From NCBI RefSeq assembly GCF_005938105.1, contig NZ_VCPE01000005.1:1-64000 (forward strand): a DNA stretch of 64,000 nt, in the 5' to 3' direction. Position 1 is the first letter of the stretch, and every line of letters begins with the position of its first letter. The notes beneath the pieces are model-generated. The model searched no databases, was not told the origin of the DNA, and saw only the letters and a list, made by a program, of their open reading frames with translations. This document shows positions 1 through 36,182 of the stretch, one piece after another. The position numbers were made by a program, and so were the translations under genes. The stretch comes from Brucella haematophila. GTDB lineage: Bacteria; Pseudomonadota; Alphaproteobacteria; Rhizobiales; Rhizobiaceae.

Positions 1-128
1 GCGCACGTTCTGCCGTCTCAAAGACTGGAGGCGTGTTGCAACACGATACGACAAGCTAATGATCAACTTCGCCGCAACATGCTATATTGCAGCAATAATG
101 ACTTGGTGGATCAATTGAGTCTGGAGCC
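1..128. other. Window edge, no gene recognised
   Basis: No open reading frame with a recognisable product is visible on either strand. An AT-rich stretch around 81-107 could belong to a promoter of a gene outside the window, but no clear -35/-10 pair with a following start codon can be shown. Confidence 0.5.
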
Positions 129-222
129 TAGAGCATTTGCAGCAAAACTGTGAAGCGCCTACGCGAGGAAATCAGTCCACTGGACTGATTTCTGATCCCG
201 CTTCGATGCGCAGGACAATGCG
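129..222. repeat. Palindromic intergenic repeat, third type
   Basis: Contains a perfect inverted repeat, 168-179 (GAAATCAGTCCA) against 181-192 (TGGACTGATTTC), with a one-base centre. It is flanked by an imperfect outer arm that begins at GAGCATTTGCAG (131) and is answered by GCTTCGATGCGCAGG around 200-214. It is non-coding and looks like the short mosaic palindromes scattered through Brucellaceae genomes. No second copy of this exact type was found in the window, so the family assignment is an inference. Confidence 0.5.
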
Positions 223-2837: not shown

Positions 2838-3035
2838 ATGCCTGCAAAATCTCAAGCCCAACAGAAAGCCGCTGGTGCCGCGCTTGCGGCGAAGCGCGGC
2901 GAGATCAAGGTCGGCGAGCTTTTCGGCGCATCGAAGGAAATGTATGAATCAATGACCGAGAAGGAACTGGAAGAATTTGCCGAGACCAAGCGCAAAGGCT
3001 TGCCTGAGCATGTCGACGACAAAAAGAGCACCTGA
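2838..3035 (+). CDS. Small DUF3008-family protein
   Basis: A 65-residue basic/acidic mixed protein starting MPAKSQAQQKAAGAALAAKR and ending in a charged tail. An AGGAGA site seven bases upstream supports this ATG over the longer frame. The order MPAKS, Ala/Lys-rich helix, GELFGASKEMYESMTEKELEEFA, then a lysine-rich end matches the DUF3008 family of short proteins common in Hyphomicrobiales. Their function is unknown. There is no signal peptide or membrane segment. The stop codon lies inside the following hairpin. Confidence 0.82.
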   Translation: MPAKSQAQQKAAGAALAAKRGEIKVGELFGASKEMYESMTEKELEEFAETKRKGLPEHVDDKKST

Positions 3036-3060
3036 TTTGTGATCAGGTGCTGCGTTCTTT
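3027..3060 (+). terminator. Terminator hairpin overlapping the DUF3008 stop codon
   Basis: Arms 3027-3036 (AGCACCTGAT) and 3042-3051 (ATCAGGTGCT) pair perfectly, with TTCTTT shortly after. Confidence 0.6.
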
Positions 3061-3079
3061 CTGGCAGTCGCCGCTGGGC

Positions 3080-3505
3080 TTACTCAGCGGCTTTGGTTTG
3101 AACCAGCTCGATGGCGGTCAGCTTGCCATTGGTGATGCCGCAACGCAGGTTGACGCCATCCCACTTATAGCCTGTGCTCTTGATGCGCGCTTCGCCCGGC
3201 ACGGAGATCACGGCTGAAACCTTGCGCGGGTCCTTGGTGCTGAACTTTGACGATGTATCATTGGTCGTTGCCGATGAAATATCATCCTTGGTAAAGCCGA
3301 GACGATCGTATTTCTTGTCCTTCTTCACCAGATCATAGCCGCTGGCCACGCAATCGGCGACTTGCGGCGAGGCGTGCTGGTCCTTGACCAAAGTCTGGTA
3401 ATTTCCGGTAAAATCTTTCGAGCGTTTCGGAACGGCATCCGCGTGGGCGGCGCTCGCAAAGCCGATTGCGCAAATGGTGGAAAGTATAATTTTAGTCAAT
3501 TGCAT
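3080..3505 (-). CDS. Secreted hypothetical protein with signal peptide
   Basis: A 141-residue protein not assigned to a family. The start MQLTKIILSTICAIGF is chosen because it gives a clean Sec signal peptide ending ASAAHA, three codons after an alternative ATG. The mature part is about 118 residues, Lys/Asp/Thr-rich, with two cysteines (VADCVASGYD and NLRCGITNGK) that could form one disulfide in the periplasm. The C-terminal TGYKWDGVNLRCGI segment looks like a small beta domain. No neighbour suggests a role. Confidence 0.7.
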   Translation of the reverse strand: MQLTKIILSTICAIGFASAAHADAVPKRSKDFTGNYQTLVKDQHASPQVADCVASGYDLVKKDKKYDRLGFTKDDISSATTNDTSSKFSTKDPRKVSAVISVPGEARIKSTGYKWDGVNLRCGITNGKLTAIELVQTKAAE

Positions 3506-26433: not shown

Positions 26434-27102
26434 ATGAGGCAGGCAACGTCTGAGCGGCCAAGGCTTTCGGACCGGGAAGGATTTGCATCCTTCGTCTTGC
26501 GCATGCGCGCGCGTGGCATTGATGATCCGCGCCTCTTTGCAGCCATTGAAGCAACACCACGCCAGAGCTTTCTTGCTTCGGCGTGGTCGCATCTGGCCTA
26601 TAGCACCCGCACAGCGCCGCTCGATTGCGGCGAATATATCGAAGGCATTGACGATCAGGCGCGTGTGCTGGCGGCGCTCAAGCTGGAGCCGGGTCATCGC
26701 GTGCTGGAAATCGGCACCGGTTCGGGCTTTACCGCCGCTGTCATGTCGTCGTTATCGGGCCGCGTGACGACGGTGGAACGTTATCGCAAACTTTGCGACC
26801 ACGCCTTGCAGCAGTTCGTTTCGCTCAAGCGCGAAAACATCATGGTCAAGCATGCCGATGGACGCCACGGCATGCCGGGCGGGCCGTTCGACCGAATCAT
26901 TCTCTGGCTGGCTTGCGAAGAAGTGCCGCGCCATTTTGTGGAGCTTCTCGCAACACACGGTGTACTCATCGCGCCGATCGGTCCCGGCGACGGCGAACAG
27001 ATCATGACGCGAATCTCGAAGGTCGGCAGTCGCTTCGAGCAGGAAAGCCTGATGGTTGTCCGCTATCAGCCCTTCATCGAAGGCGTTTCTTCGGTTCTTT
27101 AG
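26434..27102 (+). CDS. pcm: Protein-L-isoaspartate O-methyltransferase
   Basis: 222 residues. The SAM-binding loop LEIGTGSGF is at residues 91-99, preceded by the PCMT block TPRQSFLASAWSHLAYST. It methylates isoaspartyl residues to start repair of aged proteins. The active-site segment reads LDCGEYIEG where many PCMTs have a GQTIS-type loop, so a specialised subgroup is possible. The TAG stop is the first part of a palindromic repeat. An AGCGGGGGGA ribosome site precedes this ATG. Confidence 0.87.
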   Translation: MRQATSERPRLSDREGFASFVLRMRARGIDDPRLFAAIEATPRQSFLASAWSHLAYSTRTAPLDCGEYIEGIDDQARVLAALKLEPGHRVLEIGTGSGFTAAVMSSLSGRVTTVERYRKLCDHALQQFVSLKRENIMVKHADGRHGMPGGPFDRIILWLACEEVPRHFVELLATHGVLIAPIGPGDGEQIMTRISKVGSRFEQESLMVVRYQPFIEGVSSVL

Positions 27103-27200
27103 AGCACATCCCGAAAAGTGTGAAACGGTTTTCGGATGAGATGTGCGTTTCAATAAACATTTAGAGCGCCGATCTGATTGAATCAGATCGGCGCTCTAAA
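27101..27200. repeat. Composite palindromic repeat, family 2, copy 1
   Basis: Two adjacent hairpins. The left one spans about 27104-27147 (GCACATC...GATGTGC with CCGAAAA/TTTTCGG inner arms). The right one is a perfect 19-bp inverted repeat, 27161-27179 with 27181-27199, beginning TTAGAGCGCCGATCTGATT. The pcm stop codon TAG (27100-27102) overlaps the element. The right arm AATCAGATCGGCGCTCTAA recurs exactly at 36183-36222. Confidence 0.8.
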
Positions 27201-29659: not shown

Positions 29660-29828
29660 CTAGTGGTCTTATTCCGACATTTGCGTCCCAGTGTTACAAT
29701 CGGTCCCAGCGAATGTCAGAATCGAAAAGATCACCAGATGCTGTAAGACTCTAGTGGATTTTTCCAATTTGACGTTTGAACAAGCGTTTTTGACAAACGG
29801 AGTTCAAAGGCCAAATTCAATCCACTCG
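29660..29828. repeat. Composite palindromic repeat, family 1, copy A
   Basis: Two hairpin units. Unit 1, 29660-29737, begins CTAGTGGTCTTATTCCGACA and is partly decayed. Unit 2, 29751-29828, begins CTAGTGGATTTTTCCAATTT with inner arm TTTGACGTTTGAA answered by TTCAAAGGCCAAATTCAATC. Order, spacing and sequence match copy B at 35472-35637. The element lies between the DUF815 start and yajC. It may correspond to the Bru-RS-type palindromes of Brucella; this is inferred. Confidence 0.8.
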
Positions 29829-34008: not shown

Positions 34009-35427
34009 TCAGGCCAGTTGTTCCAACCATTTCCTGAAATCCGCAAGAGCGCGAGCGGATAGCGCACGCTTCTTGGCAATGGTCTTTTCCTTGCCACGCA
34101 GGCGCTTGCCTTCTTCCTTCGGAACTTCGACCGGCGGAAACAGTCCAAAATTGACATTCATCGGCTGGAACGACCGTTTGCCGGGTTCCGCATCGTCGGC
34201 GACGATGTGGCCGCCTGTGATGTGCCCAAGCAACGCGCCAAAGGCGGTCGTTGGCGGCGGCGGCACGGCTGCATTGCCCAGTTGCTCCGCCGCAGTGAAC
34301 CGACCGGCGAGAAGACCGATGGCCGACGATTCGACATAGCCTTCGCAACCCGTCACCTGACCGGCAAACCGCAAGGTCGGGCGCGACTTCAGGCGCAGCA
34401 CACTGTCGAGCAGCACGGGCGAATTGAGGTAAGTGTTGCGATGCAAACCGCCGAGACGCGCGAATTCGGCATTTTCCAATCCGGGAATCATCTTGAAGAT
34501 GCCCGTCTGCGAGCCGTATTTCAGCTTCGTCTGGAAACCGACCATGTTGTAGAGCGTGCCCAGTGCATTGTCCTGACGCAATTGCACGACTGCATAGGCC
34601 TTGACGGTCGGGTTATGCGCGTTGGTCAAGCCCATCGGCTTCATCGGGCCGTGGCGCAGCGTTTCGGGTCCGCGTTCCGCCATGACTTCAATCGGCAGGC
34701 AGCCATCGAAATAGGGCGTGCCTTCCCATTCCTTGAATTCCGTCTTGTCGCCTTCGACAAGCGCCGCCACGAACGCCTCATACTGCTCCTTGTCCATAGG
34801 GCAGTTGATATAGTCCTTGCCAGTGCCGCCGGGACCGACCTTGTCGTAACGCGACTGGAACCAGCAGACGTCCATATTGATCGAATCGAAATGCACGATA
34901 GGCGCAATCGCATCGAAGAAGGCGAGCGCGTCGGCATCTGTTTCCGCAGCGATGGCTTCGGCCAGCGACGGCGCGGTCAGGGGGCCGGTGGCAACGATTG
35001 TCGTGCCCCATTCTGCTGGCGGCAGGCCAGTGACTTCCTCACGCTGGATGGTGATCAGCGGATGAGCCTCAAGCTTTTCGGTCACGGCTTGCGCAAATCC
35101 CTCGCGATCCACGGCAAGCGCGCCGCCCGCCGGAACCTGATGCGCATCTGCGCAGGCCATGATGAGTGAACCCGCAAGGCGCATTTCGGCATGCAGAACG
35201 CCGACAGCGTTGGTTTCGGCATCGTCGGAGCGGAACGAATTGGAGCAGACGAGTTCTGCCAGCTGCTCGGTCTTGTGCGCATCGGTGCCGCGTACGGGGC
35301 GCATTTCATGCAGCACGACAGGAATGCCTGCCTGCGCAATCTGCCAGGCAGCTTCGGAGCCAGCGAGACCGCCGCCAACGACGTGAATGGGGGTGAGATC
35401 GGATGTGTTTGGCGATGTGTTTGTCAT
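34009..35427 (-). CDS. trmFO: Folate-dependent tRNA m5U54 methyltransferase TrmFO
   Basis: 472 residues. The N-terminal FAD-binding motif is [17 protein letters not shown], followed by the diagnostic [26 protein letters not shown]. The central [15 protein letters not shown] and the C-terminal NFGLFPP end the family core. It methylates U54 of tRNA using methylene-tetrahydrofolate. In-frame ATGs at 35439 and 35463 are alternatives; the chosen one lies closest to the conserved Rossmann start. The upstream region contains a composite palindrome beginning at 35472. Confidence 0.95.
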
Positions 35428-35471
35428 GGCCCTTCCCATATCGCCTTTGCGGGCGGCCATCAATGGGCGAG

Positions 35472-35637
35472 CTAGTGGTCTGATTCCAACATTTGCATCC
35501 CTCGGTTCAAGCGCCGAGCAAATGTTGGAATCATAAAGACCACTAGCAAGTATATGTATCTAGCGGATTTTTCGAATTTGACGTTTGAAACAGCATATGT
35601 GTCAGTCGGGATTCAAACGTCAAATTCAATCCACTAG
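35472..35637. repeat. Composite palindromic repeat, family 1, copy B
   Basis: Unit 1 (35472-35546) is a near-perfect inverted repeat: CTAGTGGTCTGATTCCAACA against a 3' arm GTTGGAATCATAAAGACCAC, both ending in CTAG. Unit 2 (35560-35637) pairs CGAATTTGACGTTTGAA with TTCAAACGTCAAATTCAATC, again closed by CTAG. The same two units in the same order occur at 29660-29828. It lies between the trmFO start and the terminator of the DUF1127 small-RNA locus. Confidence 0.85.
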
Positions 35638-35640
35638 GCC

Positions 35641-35687
35641 CCAAAAAACAAATGGCATCCGTCGCGGGAGGAAGTGCGACGGATGCC
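35641..35687 (-). terminator. Intrinsic terminator of the DUF1127/small-RNA transcript
   Basis: On the minus strand a perfect 12-bp stem (35687-35676 with 35665-35654, GGCATCCGTCGC/GCGACGGATGCC) encloses the loop ACTTCCTCCC and is followed by ATTTGTTTTTT. Nothing comparable lies further upstream, so a transcript starting before the DUF1127 gene would run to here. Confidence 0.85.
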
Positions 35688-35726
35688 ATATGGAAAGACC
35701 GGATTGGGAGGAGGAGAACCGGTCTT
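35647..35726 (-). ncRNA. Cuckoo/CcsR-type small RNA, distal pair of CCUCCUCCC hairpins
   Basis: Two hairpins on the minus strand. The first has stem 35726-35719 with 35702-35695 (AAGACCGG/CCGGTCTT) and its loop contains CCTCCTCCC (35714-35706). The second is the terminator hairpin with loop CTTCCTCCC (35674-35666). Hairpins with an anti-Shine-Dalgarno CCUCCUCCC loop downstream of a DUF1127 gene define the cuckoo RNA family (CcsR1-4 in Rhodobacter), which are Hfq-associated stress sRNAs. Boundaries of the mature RNA are inferred. Confidence 0.75.
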
Positions 35727-35732
35727 GTTATC

Positions 35733-35799
35733 GCAAAGCCTGGGAGGAGGATGGCTTGGCGATGAACCAAGGCTGGTGGGAGGAGGATCCAGTCCTGGT
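35733..35799 (-). ncRNA. Cuckoo/CcsR-type small RNA, proximal pair of CCUCCUCCC hairpins
   Basis: Two hairpins on the minus strand. Stem 35799-35789 with 35776-35766 (one A-C mismatch, one G-U) has loop motif CCTCCTCCC at 35786-35778. Stem 35760-35753 with 35740-35733 (one mismatch) has the motif at 35750-35742. With the next pair, motif starts fall about every 36-40 bases, so the locus looks like two tandem two-hairpin RNAs processed from a DUF1127 transcript. Processing sites are not visible. Confidence 0.72.
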
Positions 35800-35897
35800 G
35801 GTATTCACGGCTCGAAACTTCAATCTGAAATTTTCATCGAAAGGCGTTCAGCGTAAAGCAATCGTCGCGAACAGCTTTTCGGTCTTCAGCTTGATGC

Positions 35898-36044
35898 TTA
35901 GCGAGCCTTGCTCTGACGAGCGACATAAGGGATGTCGGCGCGGGAGATGCCGAGATCGTTCAGTTCGCGAGTCGAAAGCTGGTTCAGTTCGCTAACGGTT
36001 TCACGGTAACGACGCCAGTTGTTGTAAGAGCGAAACAGGTTCAT
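35898..36044 (-). CDS. DUF1127 small basic protein (CcaF1-like)
   Basis: 48 residues, starting MNLFRSYNNWRRYRETVSEL and continuing LSTRELNDLGISRADIPYVA. The motif Y-x-x-W-x-x-YRxTxxELxxLSxRELxDLGIxRxxI is the DUF1127 consensus. AAGGA lies eight bases upstream of the ATG. In Rhodobacter the homologue CcaF1 is cotranscribed with the CcsR sRNAs and is an RNA-binding protein influencing RNA turnover; DUF1127 proteins in Agrobacterium and Brucella affect phosphate, fucose or stress phenotypes. The hairpin array begins 99 bases past the stop on the same strand. Confidence 0.93.
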   Translation of the reverse strand: MNLFRSYNNWRRYRETVSELNQLSTRELNDLGISRADIPYVARQSKAR

Positions 36045-36107
36045 GGTCTTAATCCTTCAATGTGCGATGGTATCGCTTGGGTTCAATTCATCTCTTTTGT
36101 TGCCCAT

Positions 36108-36137
36108 GATATAAGCTATTGTTTTTGCAAGTTGCAG
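36108..36137 (-). promoter_or_regulatory. Candidate promoter of the DUF1127/small-RNA locus
   Basis: On the minus strand CTGCAA (36137-36132) and TATATC (36113-36108) are separated by 18 bases and lie about 64 bases upstream of the ATG. An overlapping TTGCAA (36130-36125) is too close for a standard spacer. Whether RpoD or an RpoH-type sigma factor reads it cannot be decided. Confidence 0.35.
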
Positions 36138-36182
36138 AGCCGACTTTGCATAGCTGCTCTGCGGATGCTGCAAGACGGTTCC

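What the first reader, a model, noticed from the sequence alone, without database searches (positions are those of the whole stretch)
35641..36137. DUF1127 gene with four anti-Shine-Dalgarno hairpins: a cuckoo/CcsR small-RNA locus
Seen: on the minus strand a 48-codon DUF1127 gene is followed within 100 bases by four hairpins whose loops carry CCTCCTCCC (three exact at 35786-35778, 35750-35742 and 35714-35706; one CTTCCTCCC at 35674-35666), spaced every 36-40 bases. The last forms a perfect 12-bp stem with a T-run. Established: cuckoo RNAs, including Rhodobacter CcsR1-4, are Hfq-dependent stress sRNAs with this loop motif, cotranscribed with a DUF1127 protein (CcaF1). Inference: this is a tandem pair of such RNAs made by processing one transcript, able to bind ribosome sites of target mRNAs. 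No annotation relying on ORFs would show it, and the DUF1127 gene itself is too short for common cut-offs. The paired, decaying loop motifs suggest duplication.
Basis: partly seen in the sequence, partly recalled or inferred. Interest (0 to 1): 0.85.

Follow-up and report, generated by a model that had tools for sequence, protein, structure and literature searches.

The report
Cuckoo small RNA after DUF1127 gene

Summary
On the minus strand a 48-codon DUF1127 gene (35898-36044) is followed by four hairpins (35652-35799) with anti-Shine-Dalgarno loops, the last terminator-like. Hairpins 2-4 fully match Rfam ar14 (93.6 bits, cut-off 58.8). Gene and array recur in 35 of 35 genomes searched of the genus (own included); 18 of 38 stem pairs show double compensatory changes. 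DUF1127 beside such RNAs is published (CIN1 locus), and four-hairpin CCUCCUCCC RNAs were described in 2011: a new member of a known kind. Corrections: one ar14 unit plus an extra 5' hairpin, not a tandem pair; the changed base of loop four is absent from the four closest copies; Hfq-dependence cannot be assumed. Upstream lies a box 2-3 mismatches from the reported VtlR-binding motif in 35 of 35 copies, 31 nt before TATA in 34 of 35, and likewise in 34 of 36 paralogous loci. This suggests LysR-type VtlR/LsrB control, not RpoH. Start sites complementary to the loops over 8 nt are rich in ABC-transporter genes (11 of 24; control 0 of 20; post hoc). Transcription, processing, regulator binding and targets are untested.

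The parts
35898..36044 (-). DUF1127 gene, 48 aa
   Evidence: PF06568 E 5e-17; against the window copy dN 0.018-0.097 and dS 0.57-1.5 for the compared copies other than the closest ones (identical sequences and L074, of other length, left out)
35766..35799 (-). hairpin 1 (extra 5' hairpin, loop CCTCCTCCC 35778-35786)
   Evidence: 6 of 10 stem pairs with double changes (helix 1)
35730..35763 (-). hairpin 2 (first ar14 hairpin, loop CCTCCTCCC 35742-35750)
   Evidence: 5 of 8 pairs with double changes (helices 2-3)
35695..35726 (-). hairpin 3 (second ar14 hairpin, loop CCTCCTCCC 35706-35714)
   Evidence: 1 of 7 pairs with a double change, 100% of cells paired (helix 4)
35643..35689 (-). hairpin 4 with T-run: intrinsic-terminator-like, loop CTTCCTCCC 35666-35674
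   Evidence: 14-bp stem; 6 of 13 pairs with double changes (helix 5); T-run read
35650..35767 (-). Rfam ar14 (RF02344) match, model 1-123 of 123
   Evidence: 93.6 bits, gathering 58.8
36147..36161 (-). VtlR/LsrB-type box CAGAGCAGCTATGCA
   Evidence: 12 of 15 identical to the reported Brucella VtlR motif (motif: PMC12595884; comparison)
36109..36138 (-). predicted sigma-70-type core promoter: TCTGCAA-N17-TTATAT
   Evidence: read from upstream sequences of loci A and B; box-to-TATA distance constant; inference
34009..35463 (-). trmFO-type gene (GIDA family), same strand, downstream: conserved neighbour
   Evidence: PF01134; arrays before trmFO in other genera
35470..35640 (.). dispersed palindromic repeat between array and trmFO; not part of the RNA
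   Evidence: inverted arms

Best explanation
A two-product operon. A LysR-type activator (VtlR/LsrB) binds the box at 36147-36161 and switches on one transcript starting near 36102 and ending at hairpin 4. Its first part is translated into the 48-aa DUF1127 protein; its 3' part is cut out as an ar14/cuckoo small RNA with four hairpins. The exposed CUCCUCCC loops pair with G-rich Shine-Dalgarno sites and block translation of mRNAs, above all those of ABC-transporter solute-binding proteins. Shown here: gene, predicted fold, covariation, family match, conserved box and linkage, enrichment of candidate sites. Inferred: transcription start, cotranscription, processing, VtlR binding, target repression.
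For: RNA: Rfam ar14; fold z -6; 34 distinct copies, 98.6% of cells paired, 18 of 38 pairs with double changes, 88 such cells against 29 in shuffles, 0 of 500 shuffles reach any of five measures; sliding the partners leaves 30-39% paired. Loops 99-100% unpaired in the predicted full transcript. One transcript: in 12 of 35 copies the first loop lies 27-31 nt after the stop codon, leaving no intergenic room for a promoter of its own. Control: box within 3 mismatches in 35 of 35 locus-A and 28 of 36 locus-B upstream regions, 0 of 34 control stretches; 31 nt to TATA in 34 of 35 and 34 of 36; CAGCYATGCRAA-N29-33-TATA occurs at 2 places in the 5.5-Mb genome, loci A and B, reversed control 0 (the pattern was written after seeing both loci); a 301-aa LysR-type gene sits next to trxB, the setting and length given for VtlR in PMC12595884. 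The motif is 1 mismatch off upstream of an AbcR RNA and of a third DUF1127 gene of this genome. In trmFO loci of other genera a box within 3 mismatches lies upstream of 34 of 91 DUF1127 matches against 2 of 91 control stretches. Targets: 24 GGGAGGAG-N3-9-ATG sites against 3 for the reversed pattern; 22 of the 24 frames were long enough to scan, and 9 are solute-binding proteins and 2 ABC ATPases, against 0 of 20 TAAGGAGA control sites, 19 of them scanned (Fisher p 0.0018 for 9 of 24 and 0.0003 for 11 of 24). Published parallel: LsrB activates NfeR1 (ar14) in S. meliloti, and most NfeR1 target candidates encode ABC transport systems (PMC10746234).
Against: No transcript data were seen. For the window alone the box is 3 mismatches off, reached in 23 of 1000 shuffles; locus B's 4 mismatches in this genome are reached in 178 of 1000. 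Three further ar14 copies exist in the genome, two of them without a good box (L003, L005), and all share the loop, so candidate targets cannot be given to this RNA. Box and array do not coincide strictly in other genera: 26 of 51 DUF1127 matches with at least two loops have the box, and 8 of 40 without. The site control was chosen after the first list was seen and differs in more than complementarity; 3 of the 24 sites look like chance or internal sites (22-aa, 4-aa and 81-aa frames). Hairpin 3 shows little covariation. The DUF1127 protein may do the main work by itself (PhoR contact in Agrobacterium, PMC12501420).
Confidence: 0.75

Rival explanations
1. A CcsR-like locus proper: RpoH-driven, cut into several two-hairpin RNAs with help of the DUF1127 protein and Hfq.
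For: Same gene order, DUF1127 then hairpins with anti-SD loops; in R. sphaeroides CcaF1 and RNase E take part in processing the transcript (PMC10253847, passages). CTTGCA-N14-TATCAT upstream could be read as an RpoH-like site (my reading, consensus recalled).
Against: The ar14 model covers hairpins 2-4 as one unit; locus B has just three; the clearest conserved upstream element is the LysR-type box; the CTTGC of the possible RpoH site is found in 6 of 35 copies, CCTGC in 11 and AGTAGC in 10. NfeR1 is called Hfq-independent.
Confidence: 0.12
2. The hairpins act only in cis: a structured 3' end that stabilises or terminates the DUF1127 mRNA, without trans targets.
For: Hairpin 4 looks like a plain terminator; the first loop found lies within 217 nt of the gene in all 35 copies.
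Against: Loop columns are nearly invariant while stems vary; three ar14 copies of this genome have no adjacent DUF1127 gene (L002, L003, L005); NfeR1 acts in trans through these loops (PMC10746234).
Confidence: 0.08
3. The RNA is a buffer or binding partner for the DUF1127 protein rather than an mRNA-binding RNA.
For: CcaF1 is reported as RNA-binding and affects CcsR levels (PMC10253847).
Against: Would not explain near-invariant CCUCCUCCC loops with varying stems; [quoted passage not shown]
Confidence: 0.05

Closest known systems
ar14 (Rfam RF02344), incl. NfeR1 of Sinorhizobium meliloti
   Same: three hairpins with CCUCCUCCC loops, several copies per genome, LysR (LsrB)-type box upstream, -10 like the reported CTATAT, ABC-transporter candidates
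   Different: an added 5' hairpin; sits behind a DUF1127 gene; loop 4 is CUUCCUCCC; NfeR1 is described with its own promoter
CIN1 locus / cuckoo RNA family (Reinkensmeier and Giegerich 2015; paper not held, known from PMC10253847 and recall)
   Same: short DUF1127 gene with anti-Shine-Dalgarno hairpin RNA
   Different: none found; whether that paper mentions a LysR-type box or trmFO could not be checked
RFM SmelA099, four-hairpin CCUCCUCCC RNAs (PMC3927594, passages)
   Same: four consecutive hairpins, same loop motif
   Different: sequence membership not tested; genomic context not given in the passages read
ccaF1-CcsR1-4 of Rhodobacter sphaeroides
   Same: DUF1127 gene plus anti-SD RNAs in one operon
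   Different: there four homologous RNAs and an RpoHI/RpoHII promoter; here one ar14 unit plus a hairpin and a LysR-type box
VtlR-activated DUF1127 genes of Brucella (BAB1_0914, BAB2_0512, BAB2_0574)
   Same: short DUF1127 gene with VtlR-type motif
   Different: in the passages read they are described as small-protein genes, without mention of an RNA array; orthology to loci A and B was not tested

Membership tests
ar14 (RF02344) | covariance-model score above the gathering cut-off | tested here: met
   93.6 against 58.8 bits, full length
ar14 (RF02344) | three hairpins, each with CCUCCUCCC loop | tested here: met
   hairpins 2-4; the last loop has one substitution in this genome; four closest copies have it intact
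CIN1 locus / cuckoo RNA | short DUF1127 gene directly upstream on the same strand | tested here: met
   in 35 of 35 copies
CIN1 locus / cuckoo RNA | two to four adjacent hairpins with the loop motif | tested here: met
   four; definition from PMC3927594 passages and recall of the 2015 abstract
CIN1 locus / cuckoo RNA | cotranscription and processing | not testable with these tools
   indirect: 27-31 nt from stop codon to first loop in 12 of 35 copies
CcsR1-4 (Rhodobacter) | several homologous tandem RNAs | tested here: not met
   one ar14 unit plus one hairpin of other stem sequence
CcsR1-4 (Rhodobacter) | RpoHI/RpoHII promoter | tested here: inconclusive
   conserved element is a LysR-type box with TATA; no RpoH profile was run
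CcsR1-4 (Rhodobacter) | Hfq binding, RNase E/CcaF1 processing | not testable with these tools
   needs experiments
VtlR/LsrB regulon | match to the reported 15-bp VtlR motif in the promoter | tested here: met
   3 mismatches in the window (23 of 1000 shuffles do as well), 2-3 in 35 of 35 copies
VtlR/LsrB regulon | a VtlR gene in the genome | tested here: met
   301-aa LysR-type gene beside trxB; identity by context and length only
VtlR/LsrB regulon | loss of expression without VtlR | not testable with these tools
   reported for three DUF1127 genes of B. melitensis, about 17- to 100-fold (PMC12595884)

The most novel reading that the evidence does not exclude
The DUF1127 'genes' that VtlR controls most strongly in Brucella and relatives are in fact dual transcripts, and two of them (loci A and B) release ar14 anti-Shine-Dalgarno RNAs. 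VtlR would then be a master switch for a whole set of anti-SD RNAs (AbcR, ar14 at A, B and perhaps C1:316821) that jointly silence solute uptake, and part of what has been ascribed to the small proteins would be RNA work. The address box-DUF1127-array-trmFO is old in the order, while the number of loops there grows and shrinks (2 to 11).
Probability: 0.45. Interest if true: 0.6.

Novelty: new member of a known kind. Interest (0 to 1): 0.4.

Why it matters
The kind is known, so the find itself is modest. It matters because it would join three topics that I saw treated apart in the passages read: VtlR and its DUF1127 small proteins, ar14/cuckoo RNAs, and CcaF1-type loci. If the DUF1127 transcripts carry an RNA regulator, deletions and complementations of these small genes need to be read again, and array size at a fixed address (2 to 11 loops) gives a natural series to test why such RNAs repeat their pairing site.

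Tried and rejected
Tandem duplication within the window: rejected on comparing hairpins of loci A and B by eye and the loops of other copies. True tandem copies exist elsewhere: 5.8 copies of a 137-bp unit in L224, three ar14 matches in L213 and four in L243. RpoH promoter: considered on reading, not conserved; no RpoH profile was run. Independent promoter for the RNA: judged unlikely from short gene-to-loop distances; one inside the gene is not excluded. Protein coding of the array: the ORFs over it were not pursued. The third DUF1127 gene with a good box (L009) has no array within the stretch looked at. Plasmid searches gave related DUF1127 genes (305 records); no record covered 80% of the 521-base locus (0 of 92). 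Not read because not held: Reinkensmeier and Giegerich 2015, Gruetzner 2021.

Row handling: alignment A1 has 34 of the 35 locus-A copies (L053, identical to L052, left out). 'Copies' of locus A are the best DNA matches; trmFO linkage was not checked for each. Locus B set: 36 loci chosen rows, two copies for three genomes, not exhaustive (the G004 copy, L040, was not put in). One search used 29 of the 30 loci returned (own L118 left out), i.e. best matches from 29 of 85 matching genomes; 91 matches, several per locus; those with under 250 nt upstream were dropped and not counted; its control is one fixed stretch per locus (3000-3250), in most loci inside trmFO, repeated for each match. Control start sites: 20 of 21 fetched (limit of 20 regions per call).

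Full report
What was checked. Both are there. Three exact CCTCCTCCC sites against 0.32 expected in shuffles of the window, all in 81 nt and each in a predicted hairpin loop, are not chance. The fold of the 191-nt stretch is 6 standard deviations better than its shuffles.

What it is. Rfam's ar14 model matches 35650-35767 over its full length with 93.6 bits (gathering score 58.8). ar14 has three hairpins (PMC10746234, passage); the match covers hairpins 2, 3 and 4. Hairpin 1 lies 5' of it. The genome has five ar14 copies and seven DUF1127 matches over the Pfam cut-off. Two of the ar14 copies sit right behind a DUF1127 gene: the window (locus A) and C34 (locus B). Locus B has three hairpins whose stems resemble hairpins 2-4 of locus A by eye. 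So locus A is an ar14 unit with one added hairpin, not two two-hairpin units.

Conservation. A DNA match to the locus was found in 35 of 35 genomes of the genus, own included. In all 35 a DUF1127 frame of 47-48 codons precedes the array, with at least two strict loop motifs. The gene evolves as a protein gene: dN 0.018-0.097 against dS 0.57-1.5 for the compared copies other than the closest. The first strict loop motif lies 27 to 217 nt after the stop codon while hairpins stay. On 34 distinct sequences 98.6% of cells pair, 18 of 38 pairs carry double changes, and none of 500 shuffles reaches any of the five measures; sliding the partner by 1-3 columns leaves 30-39% paired. The structure was derived from this alignment, which favours it somewhat, and related sequences can beat shuffles without structure; still, double changes are spread over hairpins 1, 2 and 4. 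Hairpin 3 has only 1 of 7. In hairpin 1 one pair is broken in 9 of 34 copies. Not every copy keeps every loop: L071 and L076 have lost the loop-4 motif and L077 that of loop 3. In the window loop 4 is CTTCCTCCC, while its closest copies L044-L047 have CCTCCTCCC.

Distribution. Of 150 genomes drawn from the order, 85 have a DUF1127 match. Of the 29 best loci looked at, 14 have at least two anti-SD sites within 400 nt downstream; none of the 29 has any on the opposite strand there. With the downstream neighbour trmFO as anchor in named genomes, 39 of 80 loci have at least three anti-SD sites in the 1500 nt before the trmFO match, against 0 of 80 on the opposite strand; in 38 of them three fall within 130 nt; 62 of 80 have a DUF1127 match nearby. 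These include Brucella, Mesorhizobium, Aminobacter, Aurantimonas, Sinorhizobium, Kaistia and Roseibium. Rfam ar14 was found in 11 of 12 such loci scanned (L224 did not reach the cut-off). Numbers vary: one to four ar14 matches per locus, and in L224 a 137-bp unit in 5.8 copies. Named relatives of the window's TrmFO (Brucella rhizosphaerae 88% over its full length, Ochrobactrum sp. CGA5 92% over residues 19-480) suggest Brucella in the wide sense, including Ochrobactrum.

Control of the locus. The upstream regions of A and B share CAGCTATGCAAA followed by TATA, with 31 nt between in 34 of 35 A copies and 34 of 36 B copies. The pattern CAGCYATGCRAA-N29-33-TATA has exactly these two places in the genome, and none when reversed; since it was written from these loci, only its absence elsewhere is informative. 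PMC12595884 (passages) gives CAATGCAGCCATGCA as the VtlR motif and reports that VtlR activates abcR2 and three DUF1127 genes. Within 3 mismatches it is found upstream of 35 of 35 A copies (at -111 to -118 from the start codon) and 28 of 36 B copies; none of 34 control stretches downstream came closer than 4 mismatches. For the window copy alone, 23 of 1000 shuffles do as well; for B in this genome (4 mismatches) 178 of 1000. In the same genome an AbcR RNA (L148) and a third DUF1127 gene (L009) have it with 1 mismatch, and a third ar14 (L002) with 3, the AbcR and L002 sites in inverse orientation; ar14 copies L003 and L005 and AbcR L149 do not have it. A 301-aa LysR-type gene lies beside trxB, as VtlR does. 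In other genera 34 of 91 DUF1127 upstream regions have the box against 2 of 91 control stretches; of the 51 with at least two loops downstream 26 have it, of the other 40 eight. In S. meliloti the VtlR orthologue LsrB was shown by others to bind and activate the promoter of NfeR1, an ar14 RNA, and is said to co-activate AbcR1 (PMC10746234, section 5 and passages). The LsrB motif given there, TGCA-N6-GCAT, is not what the window has; the generic T-N11-A rule quoted there is met by some B boxes and, with G for T, by A boxes (my reading). VtlR binds the promoter of atu1667, the Agrobacterium orthologue of BAB1_0914 and BAB2_0512 (PMC7486931, sections 9 and 10). That locus A or B corresponds to those genes is likely but was not tested.

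How it likely works. One transcript from about 36102 to 35643 gives the DUF1127 protein and, by cutting of its 3' part, the RNA. In the predicted full transcript the four loops are 99-100% unpaired. They can pair with GGGAGGAG. In this genome 24 such octamers lie 3-9 nt before an ATG, against 3 for the reversed pattern. Of the 24, two frames were too short to scan; by Pfam 9 start a solute-binding protein and 2 an ABC ATPase. Of 20 start sites with TAAGGAGA, one too short to scan, none does (one of 21 sites was not fetched). Fisher p is 0.0018 and 0.0003, with the caution that the comparison was set up after the first list had been seen. This agrees with the published statement that most NfeR1 target candidates encode ABC transport systems. 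Because five ar14 copies share the loop motif, and AbcR RNAs are said to have similar ones, the sites cannot be given to this copy.

Comparison with known kinds. DUF1127 genes with CcsR-like RNAs are said to be frequent in alphaproteobacteria and were named the CIN1 locus (PMC10253847). RNAs of two, three and four CCUCCUCCC hairpins were described in 2011; the passage lists Brucellaceae among the families of a group of models that includes the three- and four-hairpin ones (PMC3927594, passages). Promoters of NfeR1 homologues, Brucella included, have been aligned by others (PMC10746234). So the finding is a member of a known kind. I did not find a paper that links the VtlR-controlled DUF1127 genes with an ar14 RNA: searches (listings; of the listed papers I read passages or sections of nine and none in whole), the passages of PMC12595884, and a review of Brucella small RNAs in which cuckoo, ar14, CcsR and Shine-Dalgarno do not occur (PMC9751625, term search). 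The library is limited to open-licence papers, and the two papers most likely to bear on it were not held, so this is weak evidence of absence.

Verdict.

Noticed in passing
window 35470-35640: A palindromic element between the array and trmFO is a dispersed repeat: 26 matches at 17 distinct places in this genome (several match themselves inverted), 11 of them nearly full length at 93% identity or more, the window's own included; a 76% copy lies at window 29660-29826.
   Followed up: partly
L047, spacer between DUF1127 stop and first hairpin: In one close relative about 105 bases are inserted in the spacer and fold strongly; parts match window 128-157 and 27100-27132, so it looks like another small dispersed repeat that the array tolerated.
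   Followed up: partly
L224 1581-2377: Aurantimonas: 5.8 tandem copies of a 137-bp unit with anti-SD hairpins between DUF1127 and trmFO, 92% matches, a recent expansion.
   Followed up: partly
L009 (C2:144252): A third DUF1127 gene has a VtlR-type box 1 mismatch from the reported motif but no anti-SD array behind it.
   Followed up: no
L002 (C1:316821-316943): An ar14 RNA without adjacent DUF1127 has the box in inverse orientation close upstream; a second ar14 (L005) with similar stems by eye lies 23 kb away.
   Followed up: partly
L131: A distant DUF1127 locus carries two groups of three anti-SD sites, with CAGCTATGC upstream.
   Followed up: no
L113 1090-1173 minus: A glycine riboswitch (RF00504) lies near locus B, beside what I read as glycine-cleavage genes; ordinary.
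   Followed up: no
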